From: a virus
Length of the DNA stretch: 64,000 nt
Virus record (IMG/VR): IMGVR_UViG_3300050821_004459
Location: 31,454 to 95,453 of that record
Reading direction: 5' to 3' (one strand)
The notes below the pieces were generated by a model. That model did not search any database and had not been told where the DNA came from. It was given only the letters and a program-made list of their open reading frames with translations. How positions within the stretch are numbered: the stretch's first letter is position 1; each line of letters opens with the position of its first letter. Below, in pieces: positions 3,329 to 61,273 of this stretch. The position numbers were made by a program, and so were the translations under genes.

Positions 3329-4321
3329 ATGAAAACGCCGGTAAATTTCGTTAACCTACACCATCACACTACATTCTCATTTATGGATGGATATGGGAGT
3401 CCAGCCTCCCACGTACAGCGTGCAGTGGAGCTGGGATACTCGGCGGTAGCTGCGACCGAGCACGGGAATGTTAGCTCTCACTTCCAGTTCGAGAAAGCAG
3501 CCATCAAAGCGGGCATAAAGCCCATCTTCGGTATGGAGGCATACTGTGGATCTGTTCTTGAAGAAAATGACGAGGCACGGTTCATCCTGAATGAACAGGG
3601 GAATACGATCCTTCGGCCAGCGAGAGGACAATACAAGCACCACCTCACAATCCTCGCCGAAAATGCCGCTGGATACCGAAGCCTCAACAGAATCGTCACC
3701 CAGTCCTACCTCGATCACCATTACCATCCAACGGTCTCTGGTGACAACCTTGCGGATAACTCCGAAGGAATCATTGTTCTTTCGGGATGCAGCGGGAGTC
3801 TACTTGCCTGTGCACTGCTTGGAGGTAAGGGAACTCCAGAGCACATCGATAGGCCAGACTATGGTACAGCAGGAGTAGTCATTGAAAACTTCAGAGCACT
3901 CTTCGGAGACAGGTACTTCCTAGAGATCCAGCCATTCTATGAACTACCACGTAGCTGCGCCATGAACAAGGCATATGAACGGCTGAGCAGAGAATTTGAT
4001 GTACCACTAGTAGTTACGCATGATGTGCATTACCCTGAGATGGCCGATGCGGAAATGCAAGCCGTACTACATGCCGTAGGTCGCGGTAAGGCTAGCGTGG
4101 ACGACGCCATGCGCGAATGGAACTACAAGGTGCCGCTGACGCTGCCATCATCAGATAAGGCACTAGCTAATCGCCTGAAGCGCACCGGGATATCGCGGGA
4201 CTCCGCGTGGGCCGCGATCGAGGCAAGCGCCTACGTTGGCAGCCTATGTAACGTGACTTTGCCTAAAGCGGAACGTCTCCGCTACAATGCAACGGAAAGG
4301 GATATGCAGCCATGGACATGA
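3329..4321 (+). CDS. dnaE (N-terminal part): DNA polymerase III alpha subunit, PHP domain (N-terminal part of a split polymerase)
   Basis: A 330-residue protein equal to the PHP (polymerase and histidinol phosphatase) domain of bacterial DnaE. The metal-ligand motifs look intact: H11/H13 and D20 (LHHHTTFSFMDG), E44-H45 (TEHGN), GMEAY near E70 and the late THDVHY (about residues 230-235). DnaE proteins with an intact set often have metal-dependent exonuclease or pyrophosphatase activity, whereas the E. coli domain is degenerate. The protein ends at CNVTLPKAERLRY, exactly where the palm domain would begin in an unsplit enzyme; the catalytic part is a separate gene (5382-7667) after three small genes. 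The two products presumably associate. Confidence 0.85.
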   Translation: MKTPVNFVNLHHHTTFSFMDGYGSPASHVQRAVELGYSAVAATEHGNVSSHFQFEKAAIKAGIKPIFGMEAYCGSVLEENDEARFILNEQGNTILRPARGQYKHHLTILAENAAGYRSLNRIVTQSYLDHHYHPTVSGDNLADNSEGIIVLSGCSGSLLACALLGGKGTPEHIDRPDYGTAGVVIENFRALFGDRYFLEIQPFYELPRSCAMNKAYERLSREFDVPLVVTHDVHYPEMADAEMQAVLHAVGRGKASVDDAMREWNYKVPLTLPSSDKALANRLKRTGISRDSAWAAIEASAYVGSLCNVTLPKAERLRYNATERDMQPWT

Positions 4322-4979: not shown

Positions 4980-5385
4980 CTTTGATGAGGAACTAACATC
5001 AGAGGATCTGAATGAACGTCGCAGACTAGAGCGAACATTCTGCAGGATAAGATTGTACCGGATCGCGATGATCATAGGATGCACAAGAGGAACAGTACAG
5101 AGATGGGAAAGGGATGGAATAAAAACTGATACAGAAGCCACCGAAGCATACCGTAGAATAATGCGAGGCATACATAATCACGTCACCGTAGATTACTGGC
5201 CTTGCCCGACAATAATTAAACTTGCACCCGATAAATGGAACAAACGTCGAATATCAGAGCTGTATGCAATAAATAGAATTTCCGCCAAATGCAGTGATTG
5301 TGATAATTTCATAACGGGCACCGGCAAGACCGGATTGTGCCAAACTTGCTGGGTCACAAAAAAGAACAAGGCGGCCGTAAAATGA
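4966..5385 (+). CDS. HTH DNA-binding protein with zinc-ribbon tail (paralogue 2)
   Basis: 139 residues, overlapping paralogue 1 by 14 bases. It shares the helix-turn-helix (RLERTFCRIRLYRIAMIIGC followed by TRGTVQRWERDG) and the HNHVTVDYWPCPTIIKLAPD block with its neighbour, then adds about 30 residues with CSDCDNF and CQTCW, a four-cysteine zinc ribbon missing from the first copy. The stop overlaps the ATG of the polymerase gene (ATGA), so translation of the polymerase is probably coupled to it. Confidence 0.7.
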   Translation: MSNNDFDEELTSEDLNERRRLERTFCRIRLYRIAMIIGCTRGTVQRWERDGIKTDTEATEAYRRIMRGIHNHVTVDYWPCPTIIKLAPDKWNKRRISELYAINRISAKCSDCDNFITGTGKTGLCQTCWVTKKNKAAVK

Positions 5386-7667
5386 CATCAGAAGATCTAT
5401 ATTGGCAGTGGCTCCGATTCGGCTGGAATTACCGGCAGCTTGGCAAGCGACCAGTAGCCGAAAGGAACTGGTACGGTGAGCGAACAAAGTATGAATCTGG
5501 CCTAATTCTCGGGAAAGACTTTGCAGACTTCTTCCTTGCTACGAGCGACATGGTACGCTGGGCCAAGGACTACCGAGGGCCAGAAGCTCCACATGGCATA
5601 CCTATGGGACCGGGGCGCGGCTCGGTAGCCGCGAGTAATGTGGCCTGGATGCTGAGGATTACCGAAGTTGATCCGATCCGGTACCCCAATCTACTGTTCG
5701 AAAGGTTCATTGATGTCACGCGATCTGACCCGCCGGATATTGACCTGGACATTTCAGACGAGCACCGGTATTTGGTGCGTGACTATATGTCTCGGCGTTA
5801 CGGTGCTGACTGCGTGGGAACTGTCGCTAACTTTGTTCGCTATCGTGGCAAGAATAGCCTGGCTGACGTGGCTCGTGTCTATAATGTTCCGTCTTACGCC
5901 AAGGAAGTAGTTAGCAATCTAGTTATTGAACGATCAGGCGGCGACTCGCGATTTGACGCGAGTCTTGTGGACACCGTGGAACTCTTCCCGGCTGCCAAAG
6001 AGGTATTCGATACCTACCCTGATCTATGGAATGCGGTCCGTCTCGAAGGCAACATGCGCGGGATGAGCGTACATGCCGCCGGTCTGATCGTTACCCCGAC
6101 CCCGATTACCGATATCTGCGCGATCTACGACCGCGATGGCCGCTCCATCCTCAGCATCGATAAGTATGACGTCGACTCGGCCGGCATGCTGAAGATGGAC
6201 CTACTCGGGCTAAGCACCATGGGCGTCATTGCGAAATGCCTTGAGATGATCGGGCTTACCTTGGAGGATCTCTATGCCATCCCGGATGATGATCCATCAG
6301 CTCTCGCAGTCTTCAAGCAGGGAGATGTGGTTGGTCTCTTTCAGTATGAGGGAAGAGCAACCCGGCTCATCAATAGAGATGTCAGTCCTGATAACTTTGG
6401 AGAGGTCATTGATATCAACGCGCTCTCGCGCCCAGGTCCGCTCTTTTCTGGAACAACTGCTGAATATGTTGACGTCAAACACGGACGACGAAAGCCAGAA
6501 CGATACCACGACGTAGTAACAAATATCACAAAGCACACCAAGGGTCAGATTATCTATCAGGAGCAGATCCTGCAAACTGTACGGGATGTCGGGGACTTCG
6601 ACTGGACACATGCCGTCGAGATCCGTCGCATCATCTCGAAGAAGATGGGTGAAGCGGCATTCGACGTCAACAAGGAACGATTCATGGAGGGGGCCGCGAG
6701 GCTCCATGGTATTAGCCCAGAGACAGCAGACAGAATATGGAAGAGACTAGTCACCAGCGGAACCTACGCCTTTGTCTATGCACACTCCGTGAGCTATGCA
6801 ATACTAGCCCTGTGGTGCGCGTGGCTCAAAGCGCACCACCCGCTGGAATTCTATGCCTCGCACCTTGCGAAGACCGACGACAAGGAAGCCCGGTTCCGCC
6901 TAATGCGGGATGCGATGCAACACGATATCCGAATCAGCCCGCCAAGACTTAAGTACAGCCGTAGATCATGGACTCCATGGCTCAAGGCCGATGGAACGGG
7001 CGAACTAATTGCAGGATGGCGCGAGATACCGGGCATCGGCCCTATCGTCTCAGTGAACATCGAGCAGGACGTGAAGGACAATGGTCCATTCAAACATTGG
7101 TCTGATATGGAGCGCATCCACGGAATTGGCCCGAAGACAGTAGAGAAGATCCAGGCATTTGCAACATCAGATGACCCATTTGAGCTGAAGCTAACCGAGC
7201 GACGACTAGGCAGGGTCAATTCCTGGATCAAGAGCCAGGCGCGCGTACCGCGCCTAACACACGACGGGGCAATGCTAGCCGCGATCAGAATGGATGATGA
7301 TAGGGGAAGCGGCAAAAAGCACAAGTTCACGAAAGGGCCGCACATAGTATACGCCGGTATCGTTCGCGAGCGCGCCTATCAGGATGCGGCTGAGAACCAG
7401 AGGTCAAGGTCTGGCGAGGAGATGGAGGATATCCTAGCTAGTATGTATCGGCCCGACCTTCTCAAGTACTGCTCGCTCCGCTGTTATGATAATAGCGATG
7501 AGGAAATATACATCAGGATTAACCGATTCGTGTTTCCGAAACTTCGCAGGTTCGTTGACTCGATTAATGTCGACCATGATGTGGTAGTTTGCTCCGGCAA
7601 CCGTATTGCTGGATTCGGCACCCCGATTCTAGCCGAACAGATATGGGTAGTAGACCCGGATGATTAA
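5382..7667 (+). CDS. dnaE (C-terminal part): DNA polymerase III alpha subunit, catalytic palm/fingers part (C-terminal part of a split polymerase)
   Basis: A 761-residue C-family replicative polymerase lacking the PHP domain. Diagnostic motifs: MGPGRGSVAASN near 75-86, PPDIDLDI with catalytic Asp 121 and 123, KMDLLGL with Asp 273, the FVYAHSVSYA fingers block near 464-473, and a (HhH)2 unit with IPGIGP and IHGIGP near 549-584. The last 150 residues resemble a short OB-like domain; no clear clamp-binding tail is visible. ATG 5382 is chosen over an in-frame ATG at 5337 because it gives the ATGA overlap and avoids 48 bases inside the HTH gene. It should form the phage replisome core with the PHP subunit and perhaps the exonuclease at 151-738. 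Confidence 0.9.
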   Translation: MTSEDLYWQWLRFGWNYRQLGKRPVAERNWYGERTKYESGLILGKDFADFFLATSDMVRWAKDYRGPEAPHGIPMGPGRGSVAASNVAWMLRITEVDPIRYPNLLFERFIDVTRSDPPDIDLDISDEHRYLVRDYMSRRYGADCVGTVANFVRYRGKNSLADVARVYNVPSYAKEVVSNLVIERSGGDSRFDASLVDTVELFPAAKEVFDTYPDLWNAVRLEGNMRGMSVHAAGLIVTPTPITDICAIYDRDGRSILSIDKYDVDSAGMLKMDLLGLSTMGVIAKCLEMIGLTLEDLYAIPDDDPSALAVFKQGDVVGLFQYEGRATRLINRDVSPDNFGEVIDINALSRPGPLFSGTTAEYVDVKHGRRKPERYHDVVTNITKHTKGQIIYQEQILQTVRDVGDFDWTHAVEIRRIISKKMGEAAFDVNKERFMEGAARLHGISPETADRIWKRLVTSGTYAFVYAHSVSYAILALWCAWLKAHHPLEFYASHLAKTDDKEARFRLMRDAMQHDIRISPPRLKYSRRSWTPWLKADGTGELIAGWREIPGIGPIVSVNIEQDVKDNGPFKHWSDMERIHGIGPKTVEKIQAFATSDDPFELKLTERRLGRVNSWIKSQARVPRLTHDGAMLAAIRMDDDRGSGKKHKFTKGPHIVYAGIVRERAYQDAAENQRSRSGEEMEDILASMYRPDLLKYCSLRCYDNSDEEIYIRINRFVFPKLRRFVDSINVDHDVVVCSGNRIAGFGTPILAEQIWVVDPDD

Positions 7668-14034: not shown

Positions 14035-14342
14035 ATTGCAGCAAGAGCGTTGTTGTAATCAAATGTGGCAGGCTGAGTGGCATCGCCATAGTATATTTCA
14101 GCTATAGTATTCAGGTACCCTATGAGCTGTAGTGCGTAAGCTGCATCACTGATACTTCCAGGATTTGCATCATTCGCGGTAGAACCAAAACCCATTGCCT
14201 CAAGAGTCGCGAGGCCGGTACCCGTACCATTTATCTGCAGTGATAGATTTGATGCCGACTGTAGCAGGTTACGTAGCGCGACTGAGAGGTTGGTGATGTT
14301 CTGACTTATTGATGCCGAATTAGACTGTGCTCCGACGGTCAT
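14019..14342 (-). CDS. Hypothetical structural protein downstream of the tail genes
   Basis: 107 residues from ATG 14342, which overlaps the stop of the large tail gene (ATGA). An in-frame start at 14375 is inside that gene and is not used. Ser/Asn/Ala/Leu-rich with long helices (NITNLSVALRNLLQSASNLS). It ends in a 16-base overlap with the membrane-protein gene. It may be a small tail or lysis accessory; function unknown. Confidence 0.6.
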   Translation of the reverse strand: MTVGAQSNSASISQNITNLSVALRNLLQSASNLSLQINGTGTGLATLEAMGFGSTANDANPGSISDAAYALQLIGYLNTIAEIYYGDATQPATFDYNNALAAMWAGQ

Positions 14343-47984: not shown

Positions 47985-48398
47985 ATGACCAGCATCACCG
48001 AACTCAACGCCGTCAACGCGCCCAAGACCCGCACCAACGCGGACGCGACTGCCGGGGTCGAGATCAAGAAGGCGGCCGCTGCGGCTGCCAAGAAGGCCCG
48101 TGACGACGCGCGCGACGCGCTCGCCAAGGCCTCCGCCGACGCCAAGGCCGCGCGCGACGCCGCGCGCGAGGCAGCCGCCAACGCTCCGAAGCCGGTCACC
48201 GCGCGGACGTTCGTGCGGGACCTGGACCGGGCGATCCTGGAGGCGGCCGGCAAGATCGTCGCCGACGCCGACATCCCGGACGAGCTGCGCGAGGACGTCG
48301 AGCACCTCATCGCCAACCAGCTCCACCACCTGGCCTCGCCCAAGACGGGCTGGGACGTGGAGGGCCTGCCGCTCCCCCAGCGGAGCGAGTGGGTCTAG
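47985..48398 (+). CDS. Ala/Lys-rich helical protein
   Basis: 137 residues. The first 70 residues are an Ala/Lys/Asp-rich helix (KKAAAAAAKKARDDARDALA, AKASADAKAARDAAREAAA) reminiscent of histone-like or coiled-coil tails; the rest is a compact helical domain (FVRDLDRAILEAAGKIVADA, DELREDVEHLIANQLHHLAS). Codon use is far more GC-rich than in the left arm. AGAGGAG ribosome site 7 bases before ATG. It may bind DNA; no family known. Confidence 0.7.
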   Translation: MTSITELNAVNAPKTRTNADATAGVEIKKAAAAAAKKARDDARDALAKASADAKAARDAAREAAANAPKPVTARTFVRDLDRAILEAAGKIVADADIPDELREDVEHLIANQLHHLASPKTGWDVEGLPLPQRSEWV

Positions 48399-52315: not shown

Positions 52316-52345
52316 AATACCACTGAAATAGCCCAAAATACCGCC

Positions 52346-52382
52346 AAAAAGGCCCTAAATCACTGCGATTTAGGGCCTTTTT
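52346..52382 (+). terminator. Strong intrinsic terminator
   Basis: A perfect 16-base stem (AAAAAGGCCCTAAATC / GATTTAGGGCCTTTTT) with a 5-base loop; the 3' arm ends in a T-run. It closes the small-gene operon and separates it from the inverted-repeat region. Confidence 0.92.
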
Positions 52383-52425
52383 GCGTGTAATAACATGAAA
52401 ATCCACATAGATTACCATATTGACC

Positions 52426-52488
52426 CATAGATCCCGCATAGAATCCATAGAAACGTTAATTTTAGGGCTTATGTGTAAGAAACTACCG
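52426..52488 (+). repeat. 63-base inverted repeat, left arm
   Basis: Starts CATAGATCCCGCATAG and ends TATGTGTAAGAAACTACCG. The inner 20 bases match the right arm perfectly; over the whole arm about four in five bases match. Confidence 0.85.
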
Positions 52489-52490
52489 GC

Positions 52491-52793
52491 TACCGTTTCT
52501 AAACCCCCTGAATTTTACAGTGTACTCAGAGTATTGCCGCAGGTAGACGCATATATGCAGATAACTGTGCACCCAGAAAATCGGAAAAATCGGACTACCG
52601 TTTCTAGGGGTGTGCAGGCCGGGGGTACCGTTTCTAGAAATACTGCATTATCAAATGTAATGAATATAGTATTTACTGCAATGAAAATCAATAATTCACT
52701 GATGTAGCTAGAATTTCTAGAACCGCTGTGCAGTCGGAGAAATCGTTTGAAACTACCGGCACTACCGTTTCTTCCCTAGAAACTACCGTTTCT
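52491..52793 (+). repeat. Five TACCGTTTCT iterons
   Basis: Exact copies start at 52491, 52596, 52626, 52763 and 52784, all on the + strand, mostly as ACTACCGTTTCTA. An ACTACCGGC variant precedes two of them, and the ends of the inverted repeats carry ACTACCG as well. Confidence 0.8.
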
Positions 52794-52880
52794 AAAATAT
52801 GATATTATAGACTACTAGGATAAATGTAAATACTGCATTTTCAATAATAATAATTAACAGGAGGGTAGAGCGGGGAGATA

Positions 52881-52943
52881 CGGTAGTTTCTTACACATAA
52901 CCCTGAAATTCAACGGTTCTATGGGTTCTATGCGGGTTCTAAG
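52881..52943 (-). repeat. 63-base inverted repeat, right arm
   Basis: Starts CGGTAGTTTCTTACACATAA on the + strand, the reverse complement of the end of the left arm. It ends 28 bases before the ATG at 52972. Confidence 0.85.
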
Positions 52944-52959
52944 CGCTCGTATTATCGGG

Positions 52960-52965
52960 TATACT
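52960..52965 (+). promoter_or_regulatory. Putative -10 element (TATACT) of a leaderless transcript
   Basis: TATACT ends 6 bases before ATG 52972, and the bases between have no ribosome-binding site. Transcription would start at or very near the A of ATG. Confidence 0.55.
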
Positions 52966-52971
52966 CGATCT

Positions 52972-53604
52972 ATGCCGATCTACATTGTTATCTCAGACGG
53001 GAAAGCATACGGGACCTACAGTGACGTCGAAGAAGCAGAAGCCGACATCACAACACTCAAGGATCGCTACGGCTATCATGCAGTAGTAATGCCTGTGGCC
53101 AAGATAAACTGGGACAAGCTCGCAGTCAACGAGGACCTATCCCAGATCAGAACCAAGACCAAAGAGATCCTGCTAGAGCTTTTCCCCACGGTGGGCACTA
53201 TTCACCCAGCCCAGTACGTCAAGGACTTCATTATCAACACGCCTGGCACAACAGCCAAGGCATCATACCTCTCAATCATCCGCCGGGAACTCGGCATCAC
53301 ATCAAAGCCCCACAGAACCAAAGGCATCCTAGGCGTCCAGTACTGGGAGTGGGTCCGAGAGTTCCCGGGAGACCAGCAAGACAACGCCAACGACCCACAA
53401 GCCCCCAGGCCCGCCCACTACAGAACCAAGGAAAATAACAAGAGAAACAAAGCACAAGAGCAGCAAGACACAACAGAGGAATTCCTCGATGACGATGACC
53501 TGATCTTCATCCCGGACCACCAGGTCTGGATTCAGGAGAAGCACATGCAGGAGTACCTCGCCGATCCAGAGAGCTACACAGGCTACCTCGAAAGAGAATC
53601 ATAG
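52972..53604 (+). CDS. Putative DNA-binding protein next to the iteron region
   Basis: 210 residues. An N-terminal compact domain (PIYIVISDGKAYGTYSDVEE), a middle that could form a winged helix (IRTKTKEILLELFPTVGTIH, AQYVKDFIINTPGTTAKASY, LSIIRRELGIT) and a charged low-complexity end (KENNKRNKAQEQQDTTEEFL, DDDDLIF). It lies 28 bases after the inverted-repeat arm with a leaderless-type promoter, so it could be the protein that acts on those repeats (initiator or repressor). No family recognised; function is inference from place. Confidence 0.6.
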   Translation: MPIYIVISDGKAYGTYSDVEEAEADITTLKDRYGYHAVVMPVAKINWDKLAVNEDLSQIRTKTKEILLELFPTVGTIHPAQYVKDFIINTPGTTAKASYLSIIRRELGITSKPHRTKGILGVQYWEWVREFPGDQQDNANDPQAPRPAHYRTKENNKRNKAQEQQDTTEEFLDDDDLIFIPDHQVWIQEKHMQEYLADPESYTGYLERES

Positions 53605-53710: not shown

Positions 53711-54583
53711 ATGGCCACAACGACCATTAGCTGCGAGGGCCAGGGCAAGCCCTGGAACGTGGACAACTCCACCACCCCGCCCACCCTGACCTGCCCCGTC
53801 TGCGAGCTGTCCAACGCCCCCAGCGAGCTCAACATCAAGACACGAACCAACGCCAAGACAGGCAAGATCACGCCCAGCACACTCCCCCAGCACGATATTG
53901 AGGTCGACGGCACCGAGCTGCGGTACATCCTCACCAACGGGGACTTCCAGGTGCACAGCGCTACCTGCCCGCAGCCCGCGAGAGACATCAAGGCCGGCAA
54001 GTCCGACTACCAGAAGCCCGCCACGCTCGTCGCCACCGACGCCCACGATGCAGTGATCCAGCTCTGGGATGACCAGCTCCGCGAGCAGGACGACCTCACC
54101 GAAGCACAGCGTGAGGACCTGTCACTAGTCCCGGACAGCTTCCTCAATGAGCACCACTACTACAACGCCACCCACTTCCACTCGCGCTGCCTCGGCAAGG
54201 TCCCCGGGTTCGAACAAGGCAAATCAAACAAGGCCAAGGGCCAGGGCAACCGCGATGCCCGCCGTCTCCTCGCGGCCCGCATGATCGAGGCGATGGCCAG
54301 GGAACTCACCACACTGAAAGACACGAACCTCACCGACACCACGAAAGAAACACAGGAACAAAGGTTCATCCTGTCCAACCTGACCAACGAGCAGATCGAC
54401 AAGATCGCATCTGCCTGGTGCCACCACTACCCCGCCGACCGCCAGCGCTGGGTCGACTCCGGCATGCCCATCCCCGACCGCTCCGACTGGCGCGAGGTAA
54501 CCACAGCCAGCAACACCGCAGAGACAACCGAGACCACAGACGAAGAGGACGAAGAGACCGACACAGACGAGGACGCGGCATAA
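53711..54583 (+). CDS. Hypothetical protein with Cys motif and acidic tail
   Basis: 290 residues. The N-terminus carries a CxxC knuckle (TLTCPVCELSNAPS), another Cys (SATCPQPARDI) and a His/Cys group (HFHSRCLG); the middle is helical (RDARRLLAARMIEAMARELT); the end is a disordered acidic tail (DEEDEETDTDEDAA). An acidic tail after a folded domain is often seen in phage DNA-binding or DNA-mimic proteins and single-strand binding proteins. Preceded by AGGAAGAGG. No family assigned; followed by a terminator. Confidence 0.7.
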   Translation: MATTTISCEGQGKPWNVDNSTTPPTLTCPVCELSNAPSELNIKTRTNAKTGKITPSTLPQHDIEVDGTELRYILTNGDFQVHSATCPQPARDIKAGKSDYQKPATLVATDAHDAVIQLWDDQLREQDDLTEAQREDLSLVPDSFLNEHHYYNATHFHSRCLGKVPGFEQGKSNKAKGQGNRDARRLLAARMIEAMARELTTLKDTNLTDTTKETQEQRFILSNLTNEQIDKIASAWCHHYPADRQRWVDSGMPIPDRSDWREVTTASNTAETTETTDEEDEETDTDEDAA

Positions 54584-55244: not shown

Positions 55245-56447
55245 ATGGTACCAGCACCGCCACCCGAAGACATAGAAAAAGAGAGCAACCTCGGCGACTC
55301 CACGACACTCGATGAGATCGACGTGTTCGCCGGCAACTGCCTCTACCTCACCCGCGAGCAGCAGACCGTAGTCGTGCTCGCATCCGCCCTCAGCCACGAC
55401 CCGAGAGCCACAGGCTCCGTCCCGCGCATCATCGTTACCGGCAAGAAGCAGTCAGGCAAATCCACCGTGATGGACGTCGGGCTGATGCTATCCAACAACG
55501 GCTGGATGTCCAATAGCACGAACGCCGGCATCCGGGCATTCTACAACACCGAGGGCGAGCACACGCTCTTCTGCGACGAGTCCCAGCGCTACTTTGGCGA
55601 GACCGGCATGCTGGGCAAGGGCCTAGAACTCTACAAGGTCGGCGTGGAGGGCTACCGGCGGCGCGCAACACTCTCATTCAGCGTAGCCCGGGCCCTAACC
55701 ATCGTCAGTTCCTACGGCGTCGCCTGGTTTGCGGGTATCGGGGACTGCGTGCCCACAGACATGATGGACCGGGGCATCCGGATCGAGATGGCTCACAAGC
55801 CAGACAGCGTCGAAAAGTGGGATACGCTCGACGACAGTGTCTGGGCGACCGGCAACGCCTACCAAGAGCAATTGCACGAGTGGGTGATGAGCAACCACGC
55901 CTATCTCGTCTGGTTCGGCAAGAACAATACCCGCCGGATTCACCCGAAGATGACATCCCGACGCAGGCAGATCTGGGGTCCGCTTGCAGGCATCGCCTTC
56001 GCGGCTGGAGGCAAGTGGCCGAAGCTCTTCATGGATGCATTCCTCACCCTCGGCCTCGACGCCGGCAGAGCCAAGCCTACCATCAATCAGCAGATCGTGC
56101 TGGACGCGCATAGCATCATCCAGGAGCAGGACGAAAATAACAAAGAAGCCGACCCCACAGCAGAGCCGCTCGCATTCCTCTACACGATCGACCTCATCAG
56201 CAACCTGCCCGAGCGCGACATCTACGAGGACTGGTCAGAGGAGTTCCTGCTCCAGTCCCTCACGAGAGCCCTCGGCACCACACGCCAGCACAGAGGGCAA
56301 AGATTCACCGGCGAGAAGTGGAATGGCAAGGGCCGGGACACGAAGCCAATCAAAGAACAGGCAGAAGACATCACGGCAAGGCTCTGGCCTGAGGAGCCAG
56401 AGGAGGAAGACCCCATCGACGACGAGCTAGGCACCCCAGACGAGTAA
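55245..56447 (+). CDS. AAA ATPase of DUF3631 type (helicase/primase-like)
   Basis: 400 residues from ATG 55245 (AGAGGAGGG ribosome site). Walker A is GKKQSGKST (residues 66-74), Walker B TLFCDES (Asp 111, Glu 112), followed by GVEGYRRRATLSFSVARALT and a GVAWFAGIGDCVPTDMMDRG stretch with a sensor/arginine-finger-like MMDRGIRIEM. The block WGPLAGIAFAAGGKWPKLFM after RRRQ is typical of DUF3631 proteins of actinobacterial plasmids and phages. The family is related to replication ATPases and may open DNA at the origin. The acidic end may be disordered. It lies about 2.3 kb from the iteron region. Confidence 0.75.
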   Translation: MVPAPPPEDIEKESNLGDSTTLDEIDVFAGNCLYLTREQQTVVVLASALSHDPRATGSVPRIIVTGKKQSGKSTVMDVGLMLSNNGWMSNSTNAGIRAFYNTEGEHTLFCDESQRYFGETGMLGKGLELYKVGVEGYRRRATLSFSVARALTIVSSYGVAWFAGIGDCVPTDMMDRGIRIEMAHKPDSVEKWDTLDDSVWATGNAYQEQLHEWVMSNHAYLVWFGKNNTRRIHPKMTSRRRQIWGPLAGIAFAAGGKWPKLFMDAFLTLGLDAGRAKPTINQQIVLDAHSIIQEQDENNKEADPTAEPLAFLYTIDLISNLPERDIYEDWSEEFLLQSLTRALGTTRQHRGQRFTGEKWNGKGRDTKPIKEQAEDITARLWPEEPEEEDPIDDELGTPDE

Positions 56448-61056: not shown

Positions 61057-61273
61057 AATAAATCAGGAAATGATCGCAGAAGCCGATGCCCTCGCCCTCG
61101 CCCTCGCCCTCGCCCTCGCCCTCATGCGAAAGTACCGGGGCGGCTTTGGCACTACTCTCGGCATTATCGAGGAGACAGAGCGCGAACTCCGCAGGCAGGC
61201 CGGGCAGGTTCATCCGGTACGGCGACGATGGCCTGATCTATGTCGACATTACCGATGGCTCTCTTCTGCATGA
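61046..61273 (+). CDS. Leu-Ala repeat helical protein (frame possibly disrupted)
   Basis: 75 residues from GTG 61046: INQEMIAEADALALALALAL, then MRKYRGGFGTTLGIIEETER and a basic end that loses protein-like character after about residue 58. A hexamer repeat (CTCGCC, five exact copies, 61091-61120) encodes the Leu-Ala run. Another frame, open from 61086 to 61325, has a better-looking end (FIRYGDDGLIYVDITDGSLL, HDGRPGIPGIDPDLVR). The two could be joined by a frameshift near 61200-61210, or be overlapping genes. Confidence 0.45.
   Translation: MGNEINQEMIAEADALALALALALALMRKYRGGFGTTLGIIEETERELRRQAGQVHPVRRRWPDLCRHYRWLSSA
61091..61120 (+). repeat. CTCGCC hexanucleotide repeat, five exact units
   Basis: A simple sequence repeat inside the gene at 61046. 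As the unit is six bases, gain or loss of units changes protein length by two residues (Leu-Ala) without shifting the frame. Confidence 0.9.

What the first reader, a model, noticed from the sequence alone, without database searches (positions are those of the whole stretch)
52426..52943. Inverted-repeat and iteron region: candidate origin, centromere or mobile unit
A 63-base near-perfect inverted repeat encloses about 390 AT-rich bases with five TACCGTTTCT direct repe­ats, bounded by a terminator on one side and a leaderless gene on the other. A linear phage genome rarely carries such plasmid-like organisation; it may be the replication origin used by the split Pol III, a partition site for a phage-plasmid state, or an array of repressor sites.
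Basis: partly seen in the sequence, partly recalled or inferred. Interest (0 to 1): 0.75.

Follow-up and report, generated by a model that had tools for sequence, protein, structure and literature searches.

The report
Phage replication-origin-like iteron region
A 520-base AT-rich, repeat-filled non-coding stretch in an actinophage-like genome sits at the head of an operon of plasmid-type replication genes; a comparable stretch lies at the same place in four distant relatives, so it is most likely the phage's start site for DNA replication and the switch for its initiator gene, although no experiment shows this yet.

Summary
Arms 52428-52488 and 52881-52941 (61 nt, 87% complementary ungapped, 90% gapped) enclose 392 nt with five exact TACCGTTTCT copies. 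This is the lowest-GC 500-bp stretch of the whole 95,453-base record and the only separated long inverted repeat found in it. A hairpin terminator lies upstream and a leaderless gene (TATACT-N6-ATG, start 52972) downstream.

Four distant viral relatives (G001, G002, G003, L051) have a low-GC non-coding repeat region at the same place, upstream of the 53711-family gene and a DUF3631 ATPase. DUF3631 is the RepAM replication-initiator family of actinobacterial conjugative elements. Three relatives encode a PrimPol-AAA_25 primase-helicase 4-6 kb further on, whose C-terminal winged helix is related to that of the 52972 protein. G001 and L051 regions still align as non-coding DNA (E 1.6e-10).

Best reading: an iteron-type replication origin that doubles as the autoregulated promoter of a winged-helix initiator (0.6). 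An operator-only region is the main rival. Partition is disfavoured (ParB-like protein, but no ParA and no shared site), as is a mobile unit (no target duplication, no second copy). GC skew does not support an origin here. Binding and replication are untested. Only G000 carries TACCGTTTCT.

The parts
52345..52383 (.). Hairpin terminator (17-nt perfect stem with A/T ends), upstream boundary of the region
52428..52488 (+). Left arm of the inverted repeat; holds CATAGA-type repeats at 52426-52435, 52437-52446, 52446-52455 and an inner GAAACTACCGG (52479-52489)
52491..52501 (+). Iteron 1 TACCGTTTCTA
52596..52606 (+). Iteron 2 TACCGTTTCTA
52626..52636 (+). Iteron 3 TACCGTTTCTA
52621..52710 (.). AT-rich block 1 (67-75% AT), possible duplex-unwinding element; holds AAATACTGCATTATCAA
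52763..52773 (+). Iteron 4 TACCGTTTCTT, preceded by GAAACTACCGGC (52749-52760)
52779..52794 (+). Iteron 5 as the near-palindrome GAAACTACCGTTTCTA
52771..52860 (.). AT-rich block 2 (72-78% AT), possible duplex-unwinding element; holds AAATACTGCATTTTCAA
52875..52885 (-). Degenerate inverted iteron TACCGTATCTC at the inner end of the right arm
52881..52941 (-). Right arm of the inverted repeat; holds CATAGAACCC-type repeats at 52914-52923, 52923-52932, 52934-52943
52960..52965 (+). -10 box TATACT, 6 nt before the ATG; a TTCTAA at the outer end of the right arm lies 17 bp upstream
52972..53604 (+). Leaderless gene, 210 aa: beta-beta-alpha-beta N-terminus, winged helix (residues about 56-130), acidic tail; proposed initiator / autoregulator
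53711..54583 (+). 290-aa protein with CPxC and acidic tail, conserved downstream of the region in four relatives; function unknown
55245..56447 (+). P-loop ATPase with DUF3631 domain (RepAM-type replication initiator family)
   Evidence: PMC3218068

Best explanation
The region is an iteron-type replication origin that is also the autoregulated promoter of its initiator operon. Proposed mechanism: the leaderless winged-helix protein (52972) binds the TACCGTTTCTA iterons and the flanking arms, brings the arms together, and melts the AT-rich blocks at 52621-52710 and 52771-52860. The DUF3631 ATPase (55245), probably with a PrimPol-AAA_25 primase-helicase as in the relatives, is loaded and primes synthesis for the phage Pol III. 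Binding in the right arm, next to the -35/-10 of the 52972 promoter, limits initiator supply. Shown: the repeats, AT-richness, promoter and terminator, gene order, positional conservation in four relatives, DNA conservation in one pair, and the winged-helix relationship. Inferred: protein binding, melting, helicase loading, and origin activity.
For: Clustered iterons far above chance; lowest-GC stretch and only separated long inverted repeat of the record. Adjacent operon carries a DUF3631 ATPase above the Pfam cut-off, the RepAM initiator family of actinobacterial ICEs, occasionally beside PrimPol (PMC3218068; plasmid NZ_CP108973 has PrimPol, hypothetical, DUF3631 adjacent). Four relatives have a low-GC non-coding repeat region in front of the 53711-family gene and the DUF3631 gene. 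In the fetched DNA of G001, G002 and G003, long inverted repeats with well-separated arms occur only there. G001 and L051 regions align as DNA, 79% over 61 nt, E 1.6e-10. The 52972 winged helix matches the C-terminus of the relatives' PrimPol-AAA_25 (phmmer 3e-4; tblastn 1e-4; predicted H-E-H-H-E-E order). In G002 a leaderless gene leaving the first repeat block encodes the same domain. Winged helices bind iterons or stem-loop origins in P4 alpha and pRN1-type proteins (PMC4234260).
Against: No binding or replication data. Cumulative GC skew has its minimum at the record ends and its maximum near 42 kb, not at 84 kb. No DnaA boxes in the region. G000 itself has no PrimPol-AAA_25 in the 95-kb record, although the record may be incomplete. 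Iterons are not shared with any relative, and repeat significance in the relatives is modest. The first gene after the region is not the same in all relatives. The winged-helix fold hits are individually not significant (best E 0.22).
Confidence: 0.6

Rival explanations
1. Transcriptional control region only: an array of operator sites bound by the 52972 winged-helix protein or another phage regulator, looping between the arms and setting the output of the leaderless early promoter, with replication starting elsewhere.
For: A promoter of one form (TATAMT-N6/7-ATG) lies at the exit in G000, G001, G002 and G003. The right arm abuts the -35. A terminator isolates the region upstream. G002 and G003 carry TTAGCGCCGCTAA palindromes, which look like operators.
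Against: A few hundred to over a thousand bases of AT-rich DNA with iterons is more than an operator needs. The sites are confined to one locus rather than dispersed over promoters. The downstream genes belong to a replication-initiator family. The two AT-rich blocks lie away from the promoter.
Confidence: 0.25
2. Partition (centromere) site for an extrachromosomal prophage state, bound by the phage ParB-like protein.
For: A ParB-like protein with HTH_ParB domain is encoded at L009:4011-4868 and kept at 57-59% identity in G002 and G003.
Against: No ParA in any of four records, and no tyrosine integrase. The ParB-like protein is conserved while the repeats are not, and no palindromic word of 14 or more is shared by G000, G002 and G003 together in the DNA held. 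The ParB-like gene lies about 15 kb away even on a circular map.
Confidence: 0.07
3. A mobile element: a non-autonomous inverted-repeat element inserted in the phage genome.
For: Long inverted repeats around about 390 bp of anomalous composition.
Against: No target-site duplication visible next to the arms, no second copy in the genome, no match in phages, and comparable regions lie at the same place in four relatives.
Confidence: 0.03
4. An RNA element: a structured untranslated transcript, or an RNA-primed origin as in RedRock-type mycobacteriophages.
For: Strong pairing potential. RNA-based prophage origins of about 600 bp are known in actinophages (PMC7157519).
Against: No Rfam family passes its threshold. 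The downstream gene is leaderless, so the region is mostly upstream of that transcript. Protein initiator genes are present.
Confidence: 0.05

Closest known systems
RepAM/PrimPol replication modules of actinobacterial ICEs (pMEA300, pSE211 and SLP1 types; PMC3218068)
   Same: DUF3631 ATPase, in the relatives together with a PrimPol protein; actinobacterial setting suggested by phage terminase hits.
   Different: Sits in tailed-phage genomes with their own Pol III; PrimPol fused to AAA_25 and a winged helix, some kb away; large repeat region upstream; 23-26% identity to plasmid DUF3631 proteins; RepAM is predicted to work by rolling circle, and no nick site was tested here.
P4 alpha / pRN1 ORF904 primase-helicase initiators with C-terminal winged helix (PMC4234260)
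   Same: Winged helix proposed to recognise origin repeats or stem-loops next to a primase-helicase.
   Different: Here the winged helix also stands alone in a leaderless gene; helicase domains are AAA_25 and DUF3631 rather than SF3 fused to the primase; the origin is several kb from the helicase gene.
Iteron theta origins (RK2, RSF1010, R6K and similar; PMC4980987)
   Same: Direct repeats, AT-rich blocks, adjacent DNA-binding protein gene, probable autoregulation.
   Different: Irregular spacing of iterons (105, 30, 137, 21 bp), 61-nt inverted arms with their own repeats, no DnaA boxes.
RepA and RNA origins of cluster A mycobacteriophage extrachromosomal prophages (PMC7157519)
   Same: Plasmid-like origin in an actinophage genome.
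   Different: No RepA of that family and no ParA found; no evidence here for lysogeny.

Membership tests
Iteron-type replication origin | Clustered direct repeats above chance | tested here: met
   Five exact TACCGTTTCT, 0 of 100 shuffles reach the count
Iteron-type replication origin | AT-rich unwinding element | tested here: met
   Blocks of 67-78% AT; lowest-GC 500 bp of the record
Iteron-type replication origin | Adjacent gene for a DNA-binding initiator | tested here: inconclusive
   52972 has a winged helix by weak homology and predicted topology; not shown to bind
Iteron-type replication origin | DnaA boxes (frequent, not universal) | tested here: not met
   No TTRTCCACA with at most 1 mismatch inside 52384-52971
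Iteron-type replication origin | Supports autonomous replication / initiator binds iterons | not testable with these tools
   Needs cloning, EMSA, marker-frequency sequencing
RepAM (DUF3631) replication module | DUF3631 domain above curated cut-off | tested here: met
   29.7 bits against cut-off 24 in the window; 34.4 and 48.5 in relatives
RepAM (DUF3631) replication module | PrimPol partner | tested here: inconclusive
   Prim-Pol domain found in G001; tblastn homologues in G002 and G003; none found in the G000 record
RepAM (DUF3631) replication module | Rolling-circle nick site of pC194 type | not tested
   -
ParABS partition locus | ParB-like protein | tested here: met
   HTH_ParB 2.1e-13, TIGR00180 above cut-off
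ParABS partition locus | ParA ATPase | tested here: not met
   No PF13614 match in G000-G003 while all 14 controls ring; records may be incomplete
ParABS partition locus | Shared palindromic parS among phages with conserved ParB | tested here: not met
   No palindromic word of 14 or more common to G000, G002 and G003 in the DNA held
Inverted-repeat transposable element (MITE) | Target-site duplication and further copies | tested here: not met
   None seen

The most novel reading that the evidence does not exclude
A family of actinophage-like phages has taken up an ICE/plasmid-type initiation system (RepAM-like DUF3631 ATPase plus PrimPol-AAA_25 helicase) as its own replication start. One winged-helix module is shared between a stand-alone leaderless initiator and the tail of the primase-helicase, so that both could read the same origin, while the iteron sequence itself turns over from phage to phage with the architecture kept. 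That would be an origin/initiator pair seen co-evolving.
Probability: 0.3. Interest if true: 0.68.

Novelty: new variant of a known kind. Interest (0 to 1): 0.52.

Why it matters
Origins of most large tailed phages that carry their own Pol III are unmapped. A specific, compact candidate with its probable initiator, kept at the same place in five phages but with different repeats, makes origin use and initiator/site co-evolution directly testable, and would link phage replication to the RepAM/PrimPol modules of actinobacterial mobile elements. It might also yield a small replicon for actinobacterial vectors.

Tried and rejected
DNA and protein searches for the region and the 52972 protein in phages, plasmids and viral contigs gave nothing useful; the ATPase alone gave nothing in phages or viral contigs, and its alignments gave nothing in genome contigs. 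Iteron sequence in relatives: none. Palindrome search AGAAACNNTACCGTTTCT: none. DnaA boxes: none in the region. Shared ParB site: none. GC skew: not supportive. Rfam: only a sub-threshold Thr_leader match at the terminator, taken as chance. The AlphaFold model of the 53711 protein is too poor to use (pLDDT 46). Foldseek of 52972: many of the top hits are winged-helix proteins but none is significant. Idea that the 95-aa ORF 52420-52707 is a gene: no support, it overlaps the arm and iterons. L052 is too weak a relative to use.

Full report
WHAT IS THERE. The window is bases 31454-95453 of a 95,453-base virus record (G000). At 52428-52488 and 52881-52941 lie the arms of a 61-nt inverted repeat (87% ungapped; 90% gapped) around 392 nt. 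Between the arms are five exact TACCGTTTCT, a word with only one other exact copy in the record. TACCGTTTCTA with one mismatch allowed is found 7 times in the window against 0.41 expected. Several copies are preceded by GAAACTACCGG, and one is the near-palindrome GAAACTACCGTTTCTA. Each arm carries three CATAGAAYCC-like repeats 9-11 bp apart. Two AT-rich blocks (67-78% AT) lie between the iterons. The region is the lowest-GC half kilobase of the record, and its inverted repeat is the only one with arms within 3 kb at E<1e-3. Upstream is a hairpin terminator. Downstream a TATACT box stands 6 nt before the ATG of the 210-aa gene at 52972.

THE NEIGHBOURS. The 52972 protein has no family hit above a curated cut-off and no database relative by direct search. 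Its residues about 62-130 match the C-terminus of a PrimPol-AAA_25 protein of the relative G001 (phmmer 3e-4; tblastn 1e-4 in the reverse direction) and two stand-alone small proteins of G002. AlphaFold gives the helix-strand-helix-helix-strand-strand order of a winged helix at pLDDT about 54-81 in that part, with low overall confidence (pTM 0.38). PDB fold hits include many winged-helix proteins but none is significant. Next come a 290-aa acidic-tailed protein (53711) and a P-loop ATPase with a DUF3631 domain above the Pfam cut-off. DUF3631 is the RepAM replication initiator family of actinobacterial ICEs, sometimes next to PrimPol genes (PMC3218068). A Streptomyces plasmid hit shows PrimPol, a hypothetical gene and DUF3631 in a row.

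RELATIVES. Pol III alpha led to G001, G002 and G003, which carry the DUF3631 ATPase; the 53711 family led to L051, whose ATPase is 33% identical to that of G001. In all four, a low-GC non-coding stretch lies in front of the 53711-family gene and the ATPase: G001 = L021:13180-14145 (GC 0.47, iteron-like TAGAAAATGG array, 25-nt inverted repeats, GTTTAGGGACC repeats); G002 = L036:4700-5913, in two blocks on either side of a small winged-helix gene (49- and 53-nt inverted repeats); G003 = L037:5811-7012 (32-nt inverted repeat with TTAGCGCCGCTAA); L051:7210-7883. In the fetched DNA of G001-G003, long inverted repeats with well-separated arms occur only in this region. The exit promoter TATACT/TATAAT-N6/7-ATG recurs in G000, G001, G002 (first block) and G003; L051 has TATACT but with a leader. 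G001 and L051 regions align as DNA (79% over 61 nt, E 1.6e-10; 70% over 88 nt) although their ATPases are only 33% identical, which points to a constrained cis element. In that pair the repeated unit differs (TTAGGGACC in G001, TTAGGGTAC/TTAGGTACC in L051); I read this as repeats changing together, which is inference. The G000 iteron is absent from all seven relatives searched. Repeat significance in the relatives is modest. The first gene after the region is not the same: winged helix in G000 and G002, other small proteins in G001 and G003. G001, G002 and G003 encode PrimPol-AAA_25 4-6 kb beyond the ATPase; G000 shows none, and its record ends fall in that part of the map.

HOW IT PROBABLY WORKS. 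Best fit: the 52972 protein binds iterons and arms, the AT-rich blocks melt, the DUF3631 ATPase and a primase-helicase load and prime, and the phage Pol III extends; binding in the right arm, which abuts the -35 (TTCTAA, 17-bp spacer, then TATACT), restrains the leaderless initiator gene. Sequence, order and conservation are shown; every binding and replication step is inferred from known systems (P4 alpha and pRN1, PMC4234260, read here; iteron plasmids, PMC4980987 and PMC4081077, abstracts only).

AGAINST. Cumulative GC skew does not turn at 84 kb. There are no DnaA boxes. A pure operator region would explain the promoter, terminator and repeats; it explains less well the length, the AT-rich blocks, the single-locus confinement and the replication-type operon. 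Partition is disfavoured: a ParB-like protein exists and is conserved, but there is no ParA, no integrase of the tyrosine type and no shared palindrome. A mobile unit is disfavoured by the lack of copies and of target duplication.

LIMITS. Records are metagenomic and may be incomplete; only five phages are compared; the host is unknown (terminase nearest to Thermobifida and Streptomyces phages); similarity of the winged helix is weak in sequence.

Noticed in passing
window 3329-4321 and 5337-7667 (+): Pol III alpha is split into a PHP gene and a polymerase gene with two or three small ORFs (with weak HTH matches) between. A separate PHP match upstream of the polymerase also appears in six of seven relatives (the seventh is cut off by its contig end), so the split is not a sequencing error.
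   Followed up: partly
L009:4011-4868 (+): ParB-like protein with a C-terminal HGxRRRxAGACHACWE cysteine/histidine motif, conserved at 57-59% in G002 and G003 although no ParA is found; it may have a role other than partition.
   Followed up: partly
window 47985-48398 (+) and 53711-54583 (+): Short paralogue of the 53711 family (ends LPLPQRSEW) near the divergent point between virion and early genes; the relatives also have short paralogues.
   Followed up: no
window 61088-61123: Perfect six-fold GCCCTC hexamer repeat in an ORF, giving an Ala-Leu run (ALALALAL); possible phase-variable or slippage site.
   Followed up: no
L009:1052-2419 (+) and L009:12465-13706 (+): Nucleotide-sugar epimerase and glycosyltransferase genes in the early region; possible DNA or surface glycosylation.
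   Followed up: no
L021:13952-13986 and 14310-14338: G001 control region holds long near-perfect palindromes built on TGGAACGGTACTgAGTACCGTTCCA, possibly operators of a dimeric regulator.
   Followed up: no
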